From positions 20,365-84,364 of IMG/VR virus record IMGVR_UViG_3300010397_000001: a stretch of 64,000 bases of DNA, one strand, 5' to 3'. Below are positions 3,591-30,526 of this stretch, piece after piece (within the stretch, counting starts at the first letter, position 1; each line of letters opens with the position of its first letter). A program made the translations under genes and the position numbers. The stretch comes from a virus. The notes below the pieces were generated by a model. The model did not search any database and was not told the DNA's origin. It worked only from the letters and a program-made list of their open reading frames with translations.

Positions 3591-4439
3591 ATGGCAGTCA
3601 GCAAGAAAGCCGCCGCTCCGGTGAAGTCCGCGAAGTCCAAGGTCGGTCCGGCGAGGATCGCCAAGGCGGAGCCCGCGAAGGTCGCTCCGAAGAAGGCTCC
3701 GGCCAAGGCGGCGCCGAAGCAGGACGTCGAGCAGATGTCCGTTCCGGACTTCCTCAAGTCCCTGCGCGACCAGATCGACGCGTTCCTCGGCTCCGCGCCG
3801 TGGGACGAAGCCGAAGCCTCCGGCACCGACGAGGAGGCGGACGAAGAGACCAGCGCGATCGACGCGCGGCGCGCGGAGCTGGAGGACATGACGCCGGCCG
3901 CCCTGCGCAAGTTGGCGAAGGCCGCGGAGTTCGACCCCAAGGACATCAAGGCCGCGTCGGTCGAACAGCTCGTCGAGAACCTGTTGGAAGCCGAATTCGG
4001 CGACGCCGAGGACGACGAGGACGAAGACGAGGAGGACTCGGAGGAGTCGGAAGACGAGGAGACCGAGGACGACTCCGACGACGAGGACGCCGAGGACGAG
4101 GAGGAAGAGGAGGACGACGGCGAGGACGATTACACCCGCGAAGACCTCCTGGCGATGTCGCTGTCCGACCTGAAGAACCTCGCGGTGCAGCTCGGCAAGG
4201 CCGACAGCAAGGCGGACCTGAAGGGCCAGGACAAGGACACCGTCGCCGATCTGATCCTAGAGGACGACGAGGAGTCGGAAGACGAGGAAGGCGAGGACGA
4301 CTACTACACCCGCGAGGACTACGAGGCGATGAAGATCGACGAGCTGAAGGCCCTCGCCGACCAGTGCGGCATCTCCTACAAGAAGACCGTCAAGGCCGCC
4401 GAGCTGATCGACGCCTTGGAGGCGTACGAGGAGGACTAG
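3591..4439 (+). CDS. Acidic protein with KA-rich head and three SAP/HeH-like repeats
   Basis: ATG start after GAGAGGGAAC. Residues 1-45 are Lys/Ala/Pro-rich like histone H1. Three related helix-extended-loop-helix units follow, near residues 97-135, 180-225 and 238-280; the last two start with YTRED and contain L-[KR]-x-L-A. They are separated by long Asp/Glu runs. Such small modules (SAP, HeH, Rho-N type) often bind nucleic acids. The acidic linkers could mimic DNA or keep the protein soluble. A terminator follows directly. Confidence 0.6.
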   Translation: MAVSKKAAAPVKSAKSKVGPARIAKAEPAKVAPKKAPAKAAPKQDVEQMSVPDFLKSLRDQIDAFLGSAPWDEAEASGTDEEADEETSAIDARRAELEDMTPAALRKLAKAAEFDPKDIKAASVEQLVENLLEAEFGDAEDDEDEDEEDSEESEDEETEDDSDDEDAEDEEEEEDDGEDDYTREDLLAMSLSDLKNLAVQLGKADSKADLKGQDKDTVADLILEDDEESEDEEGEDDYYTREDYEAMKIDELKALADQCGISYKKTVKAAELIDALEAYEED

Positions 4440-6429: not shown

Positions 6430-7919
6430 CCTATAGGGCATGGATGGTGCGGCGTCGTGCATTGCTCGGCGCCGCTCTTCTTGTAATGGCAGGTGCTGGT
6501 TGGTCATACCGACACATCCAGTCGACCATTCAAGAGGTAAATGGCAACGGATCACAGTACGGGCTGATCTTCACCTTCGCCTTTGTGATCCTGGTGTGGC
6601 AGACGTTCCTCTGCTATCGCGAAAAGCCGTGGCGGGCGAATGCCGCGCAGCAGCAGATCCTCAACGCCATGCGTATCGGTGTGGTCGTTCCCGTCTACAA
6701 CGAGGACCCCGCAGCGCTGCGACACTGCCTGGCGTCGCTGATCGATCAGAGCCGACCATTCAACATGATCTACGTCGTGGATGACGGCTCGACGAAAGTG
6801 GACTACGCGCAGGAAGGGGTGATCACCTGGTTCAAGCTCGCGTGCAAGCGCGCTGGCATTCCGTGTGCGTGGGCTGTGAAGGGCAATGGCGGAAAGCGGT
6901 CCGCTCAGGGCGTGGCGTTCATGAACGCAGACGTAGACCTGTGGGCGACGTCTGACTCAGACAGCATCTGGGCGCCCAACGCACTTCACGAGTTACAGAT
7001 ACCGTTCCGAGACACACGGGTGTTCAGCGTGGCCGGCATTGTGGTGGCGCTGAACAACACGAAGAACCTACTCGCCCGGGTAACCGATCTGTGGTTCGTT
7101 ACCGGACAGTTGATCGACCGCTCAGCGATGTCAACGATGGGTTCGGTGTTGGTCAACAGCGGACCCATCGCCATGTACCGCTCCGAGGTCATCATGAAGA
7201 ATCTCGACGGCTATCTCAACGAGACGTTCTTCAAGTGGAAGATCGAGATGAGCGATGACTCGCTGCTGACGCTGTACGCGCTTCAGGAAGGGAAGGCTGT
7301 ACAGCAGCCGACAGCGTTCGCGTTCACTCTGATGCCGGAAACTCTGAACCATCACGTACGCCAGTACCTCCGATGGATGCGCGGTGCGTTCATTCGGTCG
7401 GCCTGGCGGTTCAAGTACCTGCCGCTGAAAACCTACGCGTTCTGGGGTCATCTGCTGGGGTGGATCCAGATGCTGATGAGCACCGTCATCTTCGTGACGT
7501 TGTTCTTCGTTCAGCCGGTGAAGTCAGGCCAGTACTTGTCGGCCTGGCCGTACCTGCTCAGCATCCCGATCCTGATCGGCTACGCCCAGTCTCTGAGGTA
7601 CCTGGCTATTCGTCGCAGTGACCAGACGTTGTGGTCACAGTTGTTCACGGTGGCACTGACACCTCTTGCCACGGTGTGGGCTTTCTTCGGACTCAGGATC
7701 ATCCGGTGGTACGCCATGTGCACGCCCACGGTCGGTGGTTGGGGCACTCGGGAGAACATCGAGTTGACCATGGGTGGTGGCGCCGAACCAAGTGCACCGC
7801 AAGTCGAGGTGCGCCGTATCGTTCCGTGGTACGCGGACCCTGATCGAACGGTGGTCCTGGCAGGCAGCCGTGCGGCCGCGCAACCGACCATCTACGGGCG
7901 CCACAGGGCCGCTGAATAG
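6426..7919 (+). CDS. Hyaluronan-synthase-like family 2 glycosyltransferase
   Basis: GTG 6426 is in a GTGA overlap; the longer open frame lies in upstream genes. There are two N-terminal membrane helices (13-28 and 44-63), a cytosolic GT-A domain and four to five C-terminal helices (337-430). Motifs of class I hyaluronan/chitin/cellulose synthases are all present: VVDDGS (DD119-120), DSDS (177-180), SDDSLLT (DD277-278), Q-Y-L-R-W (313-317) and the WGTR motif (439-442). It probably makes and exports a beta-linked polysaccharide from UDP-sugars. About 500 residues is normal for the family. A terminator follows. Confidence 0.85.
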   Translation: MTYRAWMVRRRALLGAALLVMAGAGWSYRHIQSTIQEVNGNGSQYGLIFTFAFVILVWQTFLCYREKPWRANAAQQQILNAMRIGVVVPVYNEDPAALRHCLASLIDQSRPFNMIYVVDDGSTKVDYAQEGVITWFKLACKRAGIPCAWAVKGNGGKRSAQGVAFMNADVDLWATSDSDSIWAPNALHELQIPFRDTRVFSVAGIVVALNNTKNLLARVTDLWFVTGQLIDRSAMSTMGSVLVNSGPIAMYRSEVIMKNLDGYLNETFFKWKIEMSDDSLLTLYALQEGKAVQQPTAFAFTLMPETLNHHVRQYLRWMRGAFIRSAWRFKYLPLKTYAFWGHLLGWIQMLMSTVIFVTLFFVQPVKSGQYLSAWPYLLSIPILIGYAQSLRYLAIRRSDQTLWSQLFTVALTPLATVWAFFGLRIIRWYAMCTPTVGGWGTRENIELTMGGGAEPSAPQVEVRRIVPWYADPDRTVVLAGSRAAAQPTIYGRHRAAE

Positions 7920-16325: not shown

Positions 16326-16853
16326 ATGCACGACGTGATATTCGGAGTGGACCCAAAGAAGACGGCGTTGGCGGGTGTAGTCATCCGCGAGGACGGCTTC
16401 AGGGTCTACACGCGCACCATGCCTGACGATCTCACGTTGTGCTGCCACAAGGCGTTCCTATGGATGCGGCGTGTGGTGCTGGAAGAGATGAAGCTCAACC
16501 CGCTTGCCACCGTTCATGTCTACCTTGAAAAGGCGTTGGTAGGTCCAGGCAGAAATGCCACCATCGTGCAGGCATATGTCCAAGGTGGACTGATTGCCGG
16601 AGCGGTGGACGCGGGAGCCATAGTTCATCAGGTGAATCAGGCTCGTTGGAAGTCCCAGATCGTGGGGGTGGGCAACGCCACCAAGTCACTAGTCGCTCGT
16701 CACGTGAAGCTTCAGTGGCCGGAACTCTTCGCTCAGGTTCAAGCGCTACCCAAACTGCACGCACAAGACGTACTCGATGCCGGCTGCATAGCCTGGTACG
16801 GAGATAACGAACAGAAGACCCTGAGCAAGAGGAGAGGCCGTGGCCGGCGTTAG
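16326..16853 (+). CDS. RuvC-like Holliday junction resolvase/nuclease
   Basis: ATG start 10 nt after the previous stop. The RNase H-like fold of RuvC is indicated by I-F-G-V-D-P (D9), Y-L-E-K (E68) and the C-terminal helix H-A-Q-D-V-L-D-A (D148, D151), the expected four-acid active site. The length of 175 residues equals bacterial RuvC. It probably resolves branched DNA from recombination or before packaging. It lies next to the Cas4-like nuclease and overlaps the ParB fusion gene. Confidence 0.75.
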   Translation: MHDVIFGVDPKKTALAGVVIREDGFRVYTRTMPDDLTLCCHKAFLWMRRVVLEEMKLNPLATVHVYLEKALVGPGRNATIVQAYVQGGLIAGAVDAGAIVHQVNQARWKSQIVGVGNATKSLVARHVKLQWPELFAQVQALPKLHAQDVLDAGCIAWYGDNEQKTLSKRRGRGRR

Positions 16854-18294
16854 GAAGATGAAGCGTAAGAAGCTTGACGAGATAAAGGCTAAGAACATCG
16901 TTCTGTTCCAGCAAGTTACCAACGTTCCGATCGATTCGTTGAAGCCTCACCCACAGAACGCCAACGAGGGTGACATCGACATGATCGCTGAGTCGATCCT
17001 GGAAAACGGGGTCTACCGGCCGATCGTCATCAACACTCGGAACGGCTTCATCGCGGCCGGTCACCACCAGTGGTTGGCGATGAGGAAGCTTGGCTGGGAT
17101 CAGGTGCCAGTCATCACCATCGACGTTGACGAGCGCCGGCACAAGAAAATCATGCTGGCCGACAACGCTACGGCAGACCGCCGCACCTACAACGAGCGGT
17201 TGTTGGATGAGCTTCTTCAAAGTGTCGGTGACGTCACGGGTACTGGTTACACGGAGCTGGAGGTGGAAGACATCCACACCAGGGCCACTGAAGCGGCACG
17301 TGAAGCCCTGAAGAACATCGAGTCGGGTCCAGGTGCCGCCGACATGGCCGCGGAAGCTCTACGGCGTGCCAGGGGCGGCCAAACGCTGGACAATGACGAT
17401 GAGTACGACGAAGGTGTCGATGAAGGCGCCGGCGGCAGTGACGATTCAGAGTTTGAAGACCTCGGCGGAAAGAAGGACAAGGGTATCGAGGGTGCCGGTG
17501 ATGAGCTGGCTGGCGCATTCCAGTTGAAGGAGGATATGGCCTTCGACGGAGTGGGCGTGTGGGGTATCCCTCGTATCCGTACCGACGCCGGCACGCTGGC
17601 CACATGGGACGACCTGCCAGAAAACCTCTTGGCGTGGGCCGGAAGCGCAACGAAGGACTGGCCTGACCCCACCACTCACTGGCTGTACAACGTGGGGATC
17701 GACAGCGTGTCAGGGATGCCGCGCGACAAGAACGGTCTCTTCAGCCACGTCATCGCCGCGTTCTACTGCCACGACGAGTACTTCGACCCGTACTGGTGGA
17801 ATCCGTCCAAGCACACCACTCGGCTTCTCAACTCAGGTATCAGCACCATCGTGATGCCTGACTTCAGCATGCACACGCCCGGAGAGGAATCACGAGTACT
17901 CAGCTTGTGGTCCTTGTACCGCAGCAGGTGGCTCGGTAGATACTTCCAGGAAGCTGGTATGAAGCTGATTCCTGAGGTGACGTGGGCTACTGCAGACGAA
18001 GGGTTTCTCACCGACTACGTTCTCCCCACGCTCCCGAAGAAGCTTCCGTTGCTGTCGATCCAGGTGCAGACGATCGATCCGGACTCGCCGCTGAACGCTG
18101 CCTATGTCAAGCAGCTACGCCTCATCCTTGACACGGTTAAGCCAAAGGACCTGTTGATTTATCACGGTAAGCAGGGTCGGAGGCTCTTCGACGATGGCTT
18201 GGTTCCGTTCAAGGGGCGAATCAAGTTCGTCGCATCTCGCCTGTACGCTCTTGGTGAGTCAGCCAAAAAGAGAGAGAAGAAGACAACTTTGTAG
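16840..18294 (+). CDS. ParB-domain protein fused to a DUF4417-like domain
   Basis: GTG after GAGGAGAGG. Residues ~28-115 are a ParB/sulfiredoxin-type domain (L-K-P-H-P-x-N, G-V-Y-R-P-I-V-I, A-A-G-H-H-x-W, D-N-A-T-A-D-R). An acidic linker (190-230) leads to a C-terminal ~220-residue domain with PDFS, WSLYRSRW and IPEVTW, which I recall as DUF4417. Such phage fusions lack the classical ParB HTH, so they more likely act as nucleases or CTP-binding switches than in partition. Confidence 0.65.
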   Translation: MAGVRKMKRKKLDEIKAKNIVLFQQVTNVPIDSLKPHPQNANEGDIDMIAESILENGVYRPIVINTRNGFIAAGHHQWLAMRKLGWDQVPVITIDVDERRHKKIMLADNATADRRTYNERLLDELLQSVGDVTGTGYTELEVEDIHTRATEAAREALKNIESGPGAADMAAEALRRARGGQTLDNDDEYDEGVDEGAGGSDDSEFEDLGGKKDKGIEGAGDELAGAFQLKEDMAFDGVGVWGIPRIRTDAGTLATWDDLPENLLAWAGSATKDWPDPTTHWLYNVGIDSVSGMPRDKNGLFSHVIAAFYCHDEYFDPYWWNPSKHTTRLLNSGISTIVMPDFSMHTPGEESRVLSLWSLYRSRWLGRYFQEAGMKLIPEVTWATADEGFLTDYVLPTLPKKLPLLSIQVQTIDPDSPLNAAYVKQLRLILDTVKPKDLLIYHGKQGRRLFDDGLVPFKGRIKFVASRLYALGESAKKREKKTTL

Positions 18295-18497
18295 TGAATG
18301 AATCTATCGAAGCCGTGGTCGGTGACTATCCACTGTGTACCTACATGTGGTCGAGTACAACCATGGAAAAATTTGAATCAGATACTGTCTTCGGCGTAGT
18401 GAACGTTGAAAGAGTCAAGCACCATTACTGTGGCGCTCTTAAAGGTCATGAAGACAATCACTTCTGCCGTGGCTGTGGCGAGGAGACACCTCTATGA
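18294..18497 (+). CDS. Small Cys-rich protein, 67 aa
   Basis: GTG sharing a base with the previous TAG. The C-terminal part has His/Cys residues (HHYC ... HFCRGCGEE) that resemble a rubredoxin- or ribbon-like zinc knuckle. It overlaps the ureohydrolase start by 4 nt. Function unknown. Confidence 0.55.
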   Translation: MNESIEAVVGDYPLCTYMWSSTTMEKFESDTVFGVVNVERVKHHYCGALKGHEDNHFCRGCGEETPL

Positions 18498-19876
18498 CGT
18501 ATAACGACTATCCCGAGTCAACAGACGGATACGAGTACGACGAAGCCGGACGGTCTACAGCCATCCGGCCCTCTCACATTGCCATTCTGGGCGTTCCGTT
18601 CGATGGTGGCACTCTAGGCGAGAAGGTCGGTCAGCGACTGGCTCCACTGGCTATCCGCAACCTCGAAGCGCTCAGCACGATGCTCAGCGCTTACAACGAT
18701 GACGTAGATGGTGAGCAAGTGAGTGTCGTCGACTGTGGCGATGTTCAGCTCGACAGGGCGTCTTCGGCAGGTGCTGCTCACGATCTCATCGAAGAGCGAG
18801 CTAGGGCCATCAAGCCGAACACGAGCATGCTGCTTGCCGTCGGAGGTGACCACAGCATTACCCCCTGGCTGATGAAGGGCGCGCTACTTGAACAGCTATA
18901 CCTCGACGACACGCTGAAGCCGGTCGTTATCCACCTCGACGCGCACACGGACACCTGGGCGCACGAGGAATACGAGGAATACGGTACGGCTAACCACGCG
19001 TCGTGGGTGCGGTGGGTGCTGGAGAACAACTGGGCTCACGAGGTTCACCAGTTCGGTGTGCGTGGTTTCGCGCCGGACGAGAAGGATCTCTACGGTAAGC
19101 CGCTGTTCCGTCACCAGTTGCCGCCGGAAGAGTCGTTCACCAGGGCCATGCAGGTGATCAGCACTGCCGGCCGACCGGTGTACCTCACTGTTGATCTGGA
19201 TGTCTGCGACCCATCCTTCGCTCCAGGTGTGGTAGCCCCTGAGCCAGGGGGATGGACGTCACTTCAACTCATGAATTTCATCACGTCCATCGTGTCATCC
19301 GGTGCTGTTAAAGGGATGGACATCGTGGAGTGTTGTCCGCCTCAGGATTACGCCGACCTTACGGTACGCTTGGCGCATCGGTGTATTGCGGCTTCCATCA
19401 TCGGATTCTCTTGGTACCTGAAGGGGGTTCGGGACGTAGCCGCACTACGACAAATCAGGATGTCGGGAGAGGATGAGCCGGCATCCAGTCTGGAAGGAGA
19501 AGCTGTGCTCGACGCGAACACGAACGTCACTCTCCCGACCGAGGGTGACGAGATCGAAGAGCTGGACATGGACACCGACGACATCATCGAGGGTGGCATG
19601 GCCACCCGCAGCACCAAGGCCGTGAAGAAGGCCGGCCGAGGTGCCAAGAAGGTCGGCCGTGGCACCAAGAAGGCCGCGAAGGGAGCCAAGAAGGCGACCA
19701 AGACGGCGAAGAAGGCCACCAAGGGAGCAAAGAAGGCGACCAAGGCCGCGAAGAAGACGGTCAAGAAGGCCACCAAGACGGCAGCCAAGACCACTCGGGC
19801 CGCGACCAAGCCGGCGGCGAAGACGGCGAAGAAGGCCGCGACCAAGGCCGTGAAGAAGGTCGGCAAGCGAGGCTGA
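18494..19876 (+). CDS. Arginase/agmatinase-family ureohydrolase with histone H1-like tail
   Basis: ATG start in an ATGA overlap. Residues ~25-320 are a complete ureohydrolase with all six metal ligands: GGDHS (H120), LDAHTD (D149, H151, D153) and D-L-D-V-C-D-P (D234, D236). The family releases urea from arginine, agmatine or similar guanidino compounds using two Mn ions. After an acidic linker comes a ~90-residue Lys/Ala repeat tail (371-460) like histone H1 or actinobacterial HU tails. It may make a polyamine such as putrescine near the DNA while the tail binds DNA; the substrate is unproven. Confidence 0.85.
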   Translation: MTYNDYPESTDGYEYDEAGRSTAIRPSHIAILGVPFDGGTLGEKVGQRLAPLAIRNLEALSTMLSAYNDDVDGEQVSVVDCGDVQLDRASSAGAAHDLIEERARAIKPNTSMLLAVGGDHSITPWLMKGALLEQLYLDDTLKPVVIHLDAHTDTWAHEEYEEYGTANHASWVRWVLENNWAHEVHQFGVRGFAPDEKDLYGKPLFRHQLPPEESFTRAMQVISTAGRPVYLTVDLDVCDPSFAPGVVAPEPGGWTSLQLMNFITSIVSSGAVKGMDIVECCPPQDYADLTVRLAHRCIAASIIGFSWYLKGVRDVAALRQIRMSGEDEPASSLEGEAVLDANTNVTLPTEGDEIEELDMDTDDIIEGGMATRSTKAVKKAGRGAKKVGRGTKKAAKGAKKATKTAKKATKGAKKATKAAKKTVKKATKTAAKTTRAATKPAAKTAKKAATKAVKKVGKRG

Positions 19877-19899
19877 TCGTCGGTCGACGTAAGATCGGA

Positions 19900-19972
19900 G
19901 CCGTGGTACGCCACGGCCACAGCAGTACAAGAAGGCGCTCCGGGGTTGCGACCCTCCCTGGGGCGCCTTTTT
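19900..19972 (+). terminator. Tandem hairpins, the second an intrinsic terminator
   Basis: First hairpin: GCCGTGG-TACG-CCACGGC (19900-19917). Second: AAGGCGCTCC (19932-19941) paired with GGGGCGCCTT (19960-19969), one G-T pair, followed by TTT. Together they end the replication/repair block. Confidence 0.8.
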
Positions 19973-19995
19973 GCTGCCCTTAAACAGGTGGAGCG

Positions 19996-20400
19996 ATGGA
20001 TCACTTCAAATACTTACGCCAGCGGTTGAGCACCATCAAGCAGGATCCGGACGATCGTGAGCTGGTCTTCTTCATCATGCGGGACCGGGTCGGCTACTAC
20101 TGGCTCATTCAGCAAGTGAACGAGTCTGAACGACCGGACAGATTCAAGGTCACTCACCATAGGTACCGCGCGTGGCAGACGTCGGAACGACATGACATGC
20201 AGTACATGGGGGTCTTGCACACTCATCCGGATCCTGAACGGCCCAACCCTTCTCCGGATGATTACTGCTTGGCCAGCAAAAGCCGGATCCTTCTTTACGC
20301 GGTCTACTGTCCTACGCTGCGCCGGCTCACTTGGCACAACAACGAAAATGAACTGTGGCGCGTGACGATTCCTATGAAAACCAGAGCGAGGCACAAATGA
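19996..20400 (+). CDS. JAMM/MPN-family metalloprotease, 134 aa
   Basis: ATG after GGTGG. H75-T-H77-P followed by S86-P-D-D89 is the zinc-binding HxH...SxxD signature of JAB1/MPN+ isopeptidases; an upstream acidic residue would complete the site. The short length fits prokaryotic JAMM proteins, which cleave ubiquitin-like tags or release C-terminal peptides. In phages the domain usually sits in tail proteins (lambda K-like); here it stands alone with non-structural genes. ATGA overlap with the next gene. Confidence 0.7.
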   Translation: MDHFKYLRQRLSTIKQDPDDRELVFFIMRDRVGYYWLIQQVNESERPDRFKVTHHRYRAWQTSERHDMQYMGVLHTHPDPERPNPSPDDYCLASKSRILLYAVYCPTLRRLTWHNNENELWRVTIPMKTRARHK

Positions 20401-21335
20401 CTGACCTGGACATGTGGGCGAGCAATCAGGCCGACGCACGGACGGAGTGGATCGAGTTCGTCATGGGTCCTTTCCCTGATCGCATGGACGAGATGCCGCG
20501 TCGGTACAGAATCAACGTCTCGTTCATGCTGTCCAACTGGAAGTGCATCTTCGGTGAAGGGTGTCCGGGCGTCCTGGTCAGCGGCGCGATGACGGATCGA
20601 GGGTGCTGCCAGATCGGCGTGCACATCGAGCGTGACGAGCTGGCCAGGGTGAACAAGTACGTCAAGATGCTGACGCCGGCCGACCTCGATTCCGAACTAC
20701 TTAAGGACGTGAAGCAGAACGGTTGGAAGTACAACGAAACCGACGAGGAGCACCGTAGTGACGGTTACACCAAGCACACGCGAGTTGTTGACGGCGCTTG
20801 TGTGCTGGCAAATCGCGCTGGTGGGTCAAGCGGTCAGATCGGCTGCTCGCTTCACGTTCTCGCGAAGCGGATCGGGATCAGCCCCACGGAGACCAAGCCC
20901 AACATCTGCTGGCAGCTCCCAGTCGTCGCACAGGAAGAGTACGACGAGGACCGCGACGAATACGTCATCACCGTCACCAACACCCCCGGCGAACAGTGGG
21001 GGAGCAGGTACACCACCGAGGTAACACACCCCGGTTGGTTCTGCACCGAGACTCCGGACGCCTACCGGGGTGACGACACGGTGTACGTGACCAACGAGGA
21101 CAGCCTTCGCAAGCAGATGGGAGATGACGCCTACGACAAGATGTCCGCGGAACTCGATCAGCTCGCCAGGCGGTTCAGGATGCCCGGCGAGAAAATCCAC
21201 AATGGACAGCCACTGATCCCACTCATGGTGGCGAAGCGGATGGGCGAATGGAAGATCGACGCCGCCGATCCGGACAGCGAGACGACCGACGAGAGCAAGG
21301 AAGCGCTCAAGCGGAGCGCGAACTACTCAGCCTAG
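20397..21335 (+). CDS. Cys-rich conserved-looking protein, 312 aa
   Basis: ATG in an ATGA overlap. Cysteines cluster at C50, C56, C70 and C71 and again near residues 133-172 (DGACVL, IGCSLH, NICWQL), resembling YkgJ/DUF3109-type metal- or Fe-S-binding proteins; I rate that link as weak. The C-terminal third is acidic and helical. Enzyme activity unknown. Confidence 0.6.
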   Translation: MTDLDMWASNQADARTEWIEFVMGPFPDRMDEMPRRYRINVSFMLSNWKCIFGEGCPGVLVSGAMTDRGCCQIGVHIERDELARVNKYVKMLTPADLDSELLKDVKQNGWKYNETDEEHRSDGYTKHTRVVDGACVLANRAGGSSGQIGCSLHVLAKRIGISPTETKPNICWQLPVVAQEEYDEDRDEYVITVTNTPGEQWGSRYTTEVTHPGWFCTETPDAYRGDDTVYVTNEDSLRKQMGDDAYDKMSAELDQLARRFRMPGEKIHNGQPLIPLMVAKRMGEWKIDAADPDSETTDESKEALKRSANYSA

Positions 21336-29480: not shown

Positions 29481-29660
29481 GTGGCTGATTCAATGCGCGA
29501 AAAGAGCGCTGAATGCTTGTGTCGTTGGGGGCCAGTCACTCGCAGGCATGGGCAGTATGTTGATGCAGGAGACGAACTGCTCGAACTTCATCCAAACTGT
29601 CCTGATCACGGACACCAGATGGGCGAAGAACTTCGAGAACTGAGGAAAGGGGACCGTTAG
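29481..29660 (+). CDS. Microprotein, 59 aa
   Basis: GTG 29481 follows GGGAG (29470-29474), which sits inside a TTCA-N5-TGAA element. Contains C-L-C and N-C-P-D-H, a possible zinc site, with an acidic helical C-terminus. Its TAG shares a base with the GTG of the protease gene. Confidence 0.55.
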   Translation: MADSMREKSAECLCRWGPVTRRHGQYVDAGDELLELHPNCPDHGHQMGEELRELRKGDR

Positions 29661-30526
29661 TGGCAACAACACTCCGCACCGATGGGTCACGATTGGCAGA
29701 CCCGCGTCTCGGCCGTATCCCGAAGTTCGACCCGCGTTCGCTGAACTACAACATCCGCGGTCTCGTGCAGGAAGTCCCGCAGGAAGTCCAGCCGCAGCAC
29801 CTCCGGTCGTACACGTGGGGCGACAGTGACCACCTCGACCAGGGTCAGTGCAGCGGTTGTGTCGGCTTCGGCATCAGCGGCGACCTCGCGGCCAACCCGG
29901 TTCCGGTGCACGGTATCGACAACAAGTACGCGGAAGAGGGGGTGTACTGGAACATCCAGCGCGCCGACGACTACCCCGGTGGCGAGTACCCCGGTGCGTC
30001 CCCGCAGTCCGGCGGCACCTCGGTCACGGACGGCATGCGGTGGGCCAAGTCGCAGGGCTGGTACCTCGAATACCGATGGGCCACCAACGAGCTGGATCTC
30101 GCCTACGCGGTCGGCCACATCGGGCCGGCGATCATCGGAGTCAACTGGTACGAGTCCATGATGGACACCGACAAGGACGGCAACCTCGAAATCAGTGGTT
30201 CCGTCATCGGTGGTCACTGCGTGCTCGTGCGCGGCATCCACGTCATGTCCGGTGGCAAGCGCCGCTACCGCATCCGCAACTCGTGGTCGGCACAGTGGGG
30301 CATGGACGGTGACGCGTGGATCACCTCCGAGGACATGGACCGCCTGATGCACGAAGACGGCGAGTTCGCCATCCCCACGCGTCGCAACCCGGCCAAGCTG
30401 ACGGTCGTCTCGGACAGCGCCATGTTCGTGCAGGGTTCCACGGAAAACACGGTGGAGTACAAGCCGTTGTGGAAGCAGCAGTACGAAGCGGAGCAGACGA
30501 GCGTTACCGGTACGCCGGCACTCTAA
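29660..30526 (+). CDS. Papain-like (C1-type) cysteine protease
   Basis: GTG in TAGTG. The papain active site is complete: oxyanion Gln61 and catalytic Cys67 in D-Q-G-x-C-S-G-C-V-G-F, His186 in G-G-H-C-V-L-V, and Asn207 in I-R-N-S-W-S-A-Q-W-G. There is no signal peptide and only a short pro-region, unlike secreted cathepsins. It may process phage proteins or cleave host targets. Its GC-rich codon use is more like the virion genes than its neighbours. Confidence 0.85.
   Translation: MATTLRTDGSRLADPRLGRIPKFDPRSLNYNIRGLVQEVPQEVQPQHLRSYTWGDSDHLDQGQCSGCVGFGISGDLAANPVPVHGIDNKYAEEGVYWNIQRADDYPGGEYPGASPQSGGTSVTDGMRWAKSQGWYLEYRWATNELDLAYAVGHIGPAIIGVNWYESMMDTDKDGNLEISGSVIGGHCVLVRGIHVMSGGKRRYRIRNSWSAQWGMDGDAWITSEDMDRLMHEDGEFAIPTRRNPAKLTVVSDSAMFVQGSTENTVEYKPLWKQQYEAEQTSVTGTPAL

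What the first reader, a model, noticed from the sequence alone, without database searches (positions are those of the whole stretch)
18494..19876. Complete arginase/agmatinase fused to a histone H1-like tail
All six Mn ligands are present (H120, D149, H151, D153, D234, D236), and the protein continues through an acidic linker into ~90 residues of Lys/Ala repeats. A phage enzyme that could release urea and a polyamine, attached to a DNA-binding tail, suggests local polyamine production for DNA charge neutralisation, or a nucleoid-bound enzyme that disturbs host arginine/guanidine metabolism.
Basis: partly seen in the sequence, partly recalled or inferred. Interest (0 to 1): 0.72.

Follow-up and report, generated by a model that had tools for sequence, protein, structure and literature searches.

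The report
Phage agmatinase-like gene joined to histone-like gene
In this uncultured phage of an actinobacterium an agmatinase-like enzyme gene runs without a stop into a neighbouring gene for a small, lysine-rich, histone-like protein that related phages keep separate, so the 'tail' is most likely a second gene with its own start rather than a purpose-built DNA anchor on the enzyme.

Summary
The ORF (18494-19876, 460 aa) is real. It holds a ureohydrolase domain (Pfam Arginase, E 7.5e-53) with all six Mn ligands plus the catalytic His168 and Glu279, followed by a 92-residue Lys/Ala tail. The arginine-recognition Asn is missing; sequence and predicted fold are agmatinase/proclavaminate-amidinohydrolase-like, so 'arginase' is the wrong name.

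The main correction: the tail is a separate gene in relatives. In the nearest relative (L011, 91.8-kb viral contig) the order is ParB/DUF4417, ureohydrolase with its own stop, separate acidic-then-K/A gene (AAAGGAG, GTG), terminator, JAB. Gordonia phages, Brevibacterium phage Cantare and L056 have a small basic gene in the same slot and no ureohydrolase was found in them. In the window AAGGAG plus GTG at 19505 sits inside the ureohydrolase ORF, where the histone-like gene should start. Codon signal dips in the 81 nt before it and is strong after it.

Best reading: two adjacent genes that lost the stop between them. Expected products are a free 123-aa histone-like protein and a 460-aa read-through fusion; neither is shown, and whether the fusion matters is open. 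No polyamine-pathway partner was found in the phage. New variant of a known kind; modest interest.

The parts
18494..19423 (+). Agmatinase-like ureohydrolase domain (residues 1-310; the model continues the last helix to about residue 323, 19462)
   Evidence: Pfam Arginase 28-300, E 7.5e-53; model and PDB matches to proclavaminate amidinohydrolase and agmatinases; 39% identity to the L011 ureohydrolase, which ends at this point
19424..19504 (+). Joining segment without a stop (residues 311-337); probably the former gap and leader between two genes
   Evidence: L011 has a stop codon after the aligned Lys; in-frame codon score -0.018, below the 5th percentile of coding stretches; a stop-free run of this length arises by chance in 31-41% of cases
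19494..19499 (+). Internal Shine-Dalgarno site AAGGAG, 5 nt before GTG 19505
   Evidence: One of 2 such sites before 935 internal in-frame start codons; parallels AAAGGAG before the L011 gene and AAGGA(G) before the Gordonia phage genes
19505..19876 (+). Nested histone H1-like gene, GTG start, 123 aa: acidic leader then K/A-rich tail
   Evidence: Homologue of L011 7018-7353 (acidic leader match reached by 1 of 2000 shuffles); same slot as Chidiebere gp117, UBSmoodge gp119, GMA6 gp99 and Cantare gp78; codon score 0.654 just after GTG
19598..19873 (+). Lys/Ala-rich tail (residues 369-460); ATG 19598 is a weaker alternative start (GAGG)
   Evidence: Composition; weak site; predicted long helix after a disordered linker
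19925..19977 (+). Terminator-like hairpin with T run closing the unit
   Evidence: -35.2 kcal/mol, z -4.24; equivalent hairpin after the L011 histone-like gene, z -4.85
16840..18294 (+). ParB_N + DUF4417 protein, conserved upstream neighbour
   Evidence: Pfam; 39% to L011; Gordonia phages and Cantare
19996..20400 (+). JAB-domain protein, conserved neighbour
   Evidence: Pfam Prok-JAB E 3.8e-6; L011 homologue
20355..21335 (+). Cys-rich protein of about 300 aa, conserved neighbour
   Evidence: 37% to L011; 38-39% to Gordonia phages; L056

Best explanation
Two adjacent phage genes share one reading frame because the stop codon between them is missing. The first encodes an agmatinase-type, binuclear-manganese ureohydrolase that hydrolyses a guanidino compound (agmatine or a similar small molecule rather than arginine), releasing urea and an amine. 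The second encodes a small nucleoid-type protein with an acidic leader and a Lys/Ala helix that binds DNA by charge; it belongs to the phage's conserved DNA-metabolism block and starts at its own GTG (19505). Ribosomes starting at 18494 would also make the 460-aa fusion, so a long and a short product share the C-terminus. Shown by sequence: the family, the active-site residues, the separate homologous gene in L011, the shared slot in other relatives, and the internal start signal. Inferred: activity, substrate, DNA binding and both translation products. The fusion itself is probably tolerated rather than the point of the gene.
For: L011 has the same gene order with a stop after the ureohydrolase and a separate basic gene behind AAAGGAG...GTG. 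A small basic gene lies in the same slot in Gordonia phages Chidiebere, UBSmoodge and GMA6, in Cantare and in L056; no ureohydrolase was found in Chidiebere, UBSmoodge, GMA6, DalanDe, Cantare or the L056 contig. AAGGAG-5nt-GTG at 19505 is one of 2 such sites among 935 internal starts. Codon signal is poor in 19424-19504 and strong from 19505. The acidic leader matches L011's (1 of 2000 shuffles as good). Active-site residues and fold are agmatinase-like. None of the other viral ureohydrolase ORFs read out has a K/A tail. Both units end in a strong terminator-like hairpin.
Against: No expression data. The ORF is open, so a fusion should be made. The model continues the enzyme's last helix through residues 311-323 with fair confidence, so part of the joining segment may belong to the enzyme. 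Homology of the basic gene to the Gordonia, Cantare and L056 genes rests on position and layout; the Gordonia leaders do not beat shuffles. Only one genome shows the joined form, so an assembly or sequencing error at the junction cannot be excluded.
Confidence: 0.68

Rival explanations
1. Functional fusion: the 460-aa protein is the selected product, a hexameric ureohydrolase whose K/A tails hold it on DNA, possibly mixed with free tails made from the internal start.
For: Continuous ORF without a stop; last helix predicted to run into the joining segment; phage endolysins are known to make full-length and C-terminal products from one gene that assemble together (PMC9430671, PMC7098653).
Against: The separate arrangement in L011 suggests that the two units work unjoined; the joining segment codes poorly and an open run of that length is unremarkable, 31-41% by chance; the joined form is seen in one genome only; no partner polyamine genes.
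Confidence: 0.2
2. Sequencing or assembly error: a single-base slip near 19390-19410 hides the true end of the ureohydrolase gene (the +1 frame has TGA at the position matching the L011 end), and the two genes are separate in the real genome.
For: In the +1 frame a TGA falls at about residue 309, where the L011 enzyme ends; single metagenomic record.
Against: Frame 0 keeps a hydrophobic helix like L011's up to about residue 308, so the slip would have to fall within a few bases.
Confidence: 0.08
3. The ureohydrolase acts on arginine side chains of the neighbouring basic protein (a protein-level arginine-to-ornithine change), which would explain the linkage.
For: Linkage in both genomes that carry this enzyme; the window tail has 5 Arg against 12-14 in the K/R-rich relatives (22 in Cantare); the free-arginine recognition Asn is absent.
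Against: Known peptide arginases belong to another family (pfam12640) with different motifs (EEH(N/H)EAF, LDIDLDYFSC; PMC10028609), whereas this one has GGDHS and TVDLDVCDP; neighbours in phages are often unrelated in function.
Confidence: 0.04

Closest known systems
Agmatinase SpeB / proclavaminate amidinohydrolase (ureohydrolase superfamily, PF00491)
   Same: Predicted fold, six Mn ligands, catalytic His (Ec His163, here H168) and Glu (Ec Glu274, here E279), aromatic residue at the Ec Tyr155 position (W155), prolines of the oligomer motif DX2DX3PX4P
   Different: 25-27% identity; scores below every NCBIfam equivalog cut-off; GTGTP loop reads GVVAP; Ec Trp68 and loop B TEFD not kept; K/A extension
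L011 ureohydrolase and adjacent basic gene (IMG/VR 3300028792_000003)
   Same: 39% identity, same modified GV..EPGGW loop, same neighbours, same acidic DTDD..ATR leader
   Different: Separate genes: a stop codon, then AAAGGAG/GTG
Gordonia phage GMA6 gp99 / Chidiebere gp117 / UBSmoodge gp119 small basic proteins
   Same: Same slot, acidic leader then K/A/R-rich tail, AAGGA(G) before the start
   Different: No ureohydrolase gene in those phages; weak leader sequence similarity; annotated as hypothetical
Endolysin genes with in-frame internal starts (LysIME-EF1, LysP7951)
   Same: One ORF, two products sharing a C-terminus, internal ribosome-binding site
   Different: Unrelated proteins; here the short product is a whole gene in relatives
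Microcystis phage MaAM05 speH-speE-speB cluster
   Same: Phage-borne agmatinase
   Different: Part of an apparent polyamine cluster; no tail; 26% identity

Membership tests
Ureohydrolase (arginase/agmatinase) superfamily, PF00491 | Family profile above the curated cut-off | tested here: met
   180.2 bits against cut-off 22
Ureohydrolase (arginase/agmatinase) superfamily, PF00491 | Six Mn ligands in GGDHS, DAHxD, DxDxxDP | tested here: met
Ureohydrolase (arginase/agmatinase) superfamily, PF00491 | Alpha/beta/alpha sandwich fold | tested here: met
   Predicted model matches 1gq6, 7lba and 4dz4 at E about 1e-19
Arginase (L-arginine specific) | Asn130-type loop A residue that is key for arginine specificity | tested here: not met
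   Equivalent of Ec Tyr155 / human Asn130 is W155; rocF_arginase 54 bits against cut-off 227.6
Agmatinase (TIGR01230 equivalog) | Score above the equivalog cut-off | tested here: not met
   141.1 bits against 174.3; L011 168.5
Agmatinase (TIGR01230 equivalog) | Hydrolyses agmatine to putrescine and urea | not testable with these tools
   Needs an assay
[quoted passage not shown]
   The sequence has GGDHS and TVDLDVCDP; motifs from PMC10028609
Histone H1-like bacterial proteins | Profile match above the curated cut-off | tested here: not met
   No H1 model hit for the window tail; 24.8 bits against 80 for UBSmoodge gp119
Histone H1-like bacterial proteins | Lys/Ala-rich low-complexity basic domain | tested here: met
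   31 K and 25 A of 92, pI 12
Histone H1-like bacterial proteins | Binds DNA | not testable with these tools
   Needs a gel shift
In-frame nested gene with internal start | Internal ribosome-binding site and start codon giving a C-terminal product | tested here: inconclusive
   Signal present and rare; product not shown

The most novel reading that the evidence does not exclude
The joined form is functional: a hexameric phage ureohydrolase carrying up to six K/A arms, mixed with free histone-like protein made from the internal start, sits on phage DNA and hydrolyses a guanidino substrate there, so that one locus makes both the DNA-compacting protein and an enzyme held in the nucleoid.
Probability: 0.18. 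Interest if true: 0.65.

Novelty: new variant of a known kind. Interest (0 to 1): 0.4.

Why it matters
Agmatinase homologues were reported as almost absent from phages (one case in a 2023 survey, PMC9992855). Here two related viruses of an actinophage lineage carry a divergent one at the same place, next to a histone-like gene that the lineage keeps next to its ParB/DUF4417 gene. The finding corrects a tempting 'enzyme with DNA-binding tail' reading, points to a small nucleoid-type protein in Gordonia phages that is annotated only as hypothetical, and gives a simple test of whether in-frame gene joining makes mixed long and short products outside endolysins.

Tried and rejected
Arginase proper: rejected on loop A and model scores. 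Peptide arginase: motifs differ. Phage polyamine pathway: searches for PF02784, PF01564, PF02675, PF01862 and PF01276 were empty in the phage and in L011; agmatine deiminase and DNA-hypermodification genes were not searched for. Single-protein and two-row-alignment scans of viral contigs and one genome-contig scan gave only L011 or distant homologues; a DNA pattern for VDLDVCDP gave one unrelated contig. The consensus terminator scan missed the hairpin because of its loop limit; folding found it. The tree unites window and L011 (99/94) but branches are long and it does not assign a substrate. ATG 19598 as the tail's start was weighed and judged weaker than GTG 19505 (GAGG only, and it would cut off the conserved acidic leader). 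Two family searches failed on wrong coordinates and were repeated.

Full report
What was checked. The ORF 18494-19876 on the + strand is 460 aa from ATG. Residues 28-300 match Pfam Arginase at E 7.5e-53, 180 bits against a cut-off of 22. The catalytic His and Glu (E. coli agmatinase His163 and Glu274, roles in PMC8125230) correspond to H168 and E279, both conserved. The part after residue 310 is an acidic linker (pI 4.05) and a 92-residue Lys/Ala segment (pI 12).

Where it lies. The window is bases 20365-84364 of an 84,364-base IMG/VR virus record. Its terminase is about 50% identical to those of Gordonia phages and Brevibacterium phage Cantare; there are Baseplate_J, DnaB, primase, DnaE and RecA genes. 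It is therefore probably a contractile-tailed actinophage related to Gordonia phages such as GMA6 and to Cantare; the host itself is unknown.

What the enzyme is. The best solved relatives are agmatinases and proclavaminate amidinohydrolase, by sequence and by predicted fold. It scores 141 bits against the agmatinase equivalog cut-off of 174, and only 54 bits for arginase. Loop A, where human arginase has Asn130 and E. coli agmatinase has Tyr155 (PMC8125230), has W155. The alignment to E. coli agmatinase also shows that Trp68 of the agmatine pocket is not kept and that GTGTP is GVVAP. L011 has GVAYQ there, so the two phage enzymes share a changed loop. The enzyme is agmatinase-type, substrate unassigned.

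What the tail is. The nearest relative of the enzyme among IMG/VR contigs is L011 (37-39% identity), and the two form a supported pair in a tree (99/94). L011 keeps the order ParB/DUF4417, ureohydrolase, basic gene, JAB, Cys-rich protein, but its ureohydrolase ends at 6885 with a stop, and the basic gene starts at GTG 7018 behind AAAGGAG. The acidic leaders align (IEELDMDTDD..IIEGGMATR with IEDFMLDTDDDALVVSGAATR; 1 of 2000 shuffles as good). In Gordonia phages Chidiebere, UBSmoodge and GMA6, in Cantare and in L056 a small basic protein fills the same slot, and no ureohydrolase lies there. No ureohydrolase was found anywhere in the records of Chidiebere, UBSmoodge, GMA6, DalanDe and Cantare, nor in the L056 contig. 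For these the case rests on position and layout; the Gordonia leaders do not beat shuffles. In DalanDe four reverse-strand genes separate ParB from the next basic gene.

The internal start. In the window AAGGAG lies 5 nt before GTG 19505, where the histone-like gene would begin. Only 2 of 935 internal in-frame start codons in the window have an AAGGAG at such a distance. Codon scores fall from 0.185 in the enzyme to -0.018 in 19424-19504, below the 5th percentile for coding stretches of that length, and rise to 0.654 after GTG 19505. An open run of 27 codons occurs by chance in 31-41% of cases, so the missing stop needs no selection to explain it. A hairpin followed by T-rich sequence closes the unit in both genomes (z -4.2 and -4.9).

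How it most likely works. Two genes: a small-molecule ureohydrolase, and a charge-based DNA-binding protein of the phage's DNA-metabolism block. The missing stop should make a 460-aa fusion in addition to the free 123-aa protein. The same arrangement, full-length plus C-terminal product from one ORF, is documented for endolysins (PMC9430671, PMC7098653). Neither product is shown here. The linker is predicted disordered and the tail as a long helix, so a fusion would be structurally possible. Polyamine supply to the virion is not supported by partner genes, although host agmatine could serve.

Known context. A survey of viral polyamine genes found no phage arginase and one phage agmatinase homologue (PMC9992855). 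One scan here returned 42 contigs with a relative of the enzyme, L011 among them; one group of 20 forms its own clade. Microcystis phage MaAM05 carries a speH-speE-speB cluster. No tail like this one was seen on the other viral ureohydrolases.

Limits. One genome has the joined form and no reads were available. Substrate, activity, DNA binding and the two products are inferences.

Noticed in passing
window 16326-21335; L011; L056; Chidiebere gp115-119; GMA6 gp97-101; Cantare gp75-79: A conserved block in these actinophages: RuvC-like resolvase, ParB_N+DUF4417 protein, small acidic-then-basic protein, JAB-domain protein and, except in Cantare, where none was found, a Cys-rich protein of about 300 aa; the last two lie in variable order.
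   Followed up: partly
L006 6017-8795 (Microcystis phage MaAM05): Phage cluster speH-speH-speE-speB, an apparent polyamine pathway.
   Followed up: no
L012-L052: IMG/VR contigs with agmatinase-like genes; a clade of 20 with MMLTDG and GTGTPE motifs, far more than the single phage case reported in 2023. Some of these contigs may carry host DNA.
   Followed up: partly
window 3591-4439: ORF with a Lys/Ala/Pro-rich N-terminus and a weak Rho_N/DUF7440 C-terminal match.
   Followed up: no
window 29660-30526: ORF with a weak papain-family (Peptidase_C1) match.
   Followed up: no
phage record OR851657.1 (1557 bp): A 'Salmonella phage' record that holds little but an agmatinase gene and looks like host DNA.
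   Followed up: no
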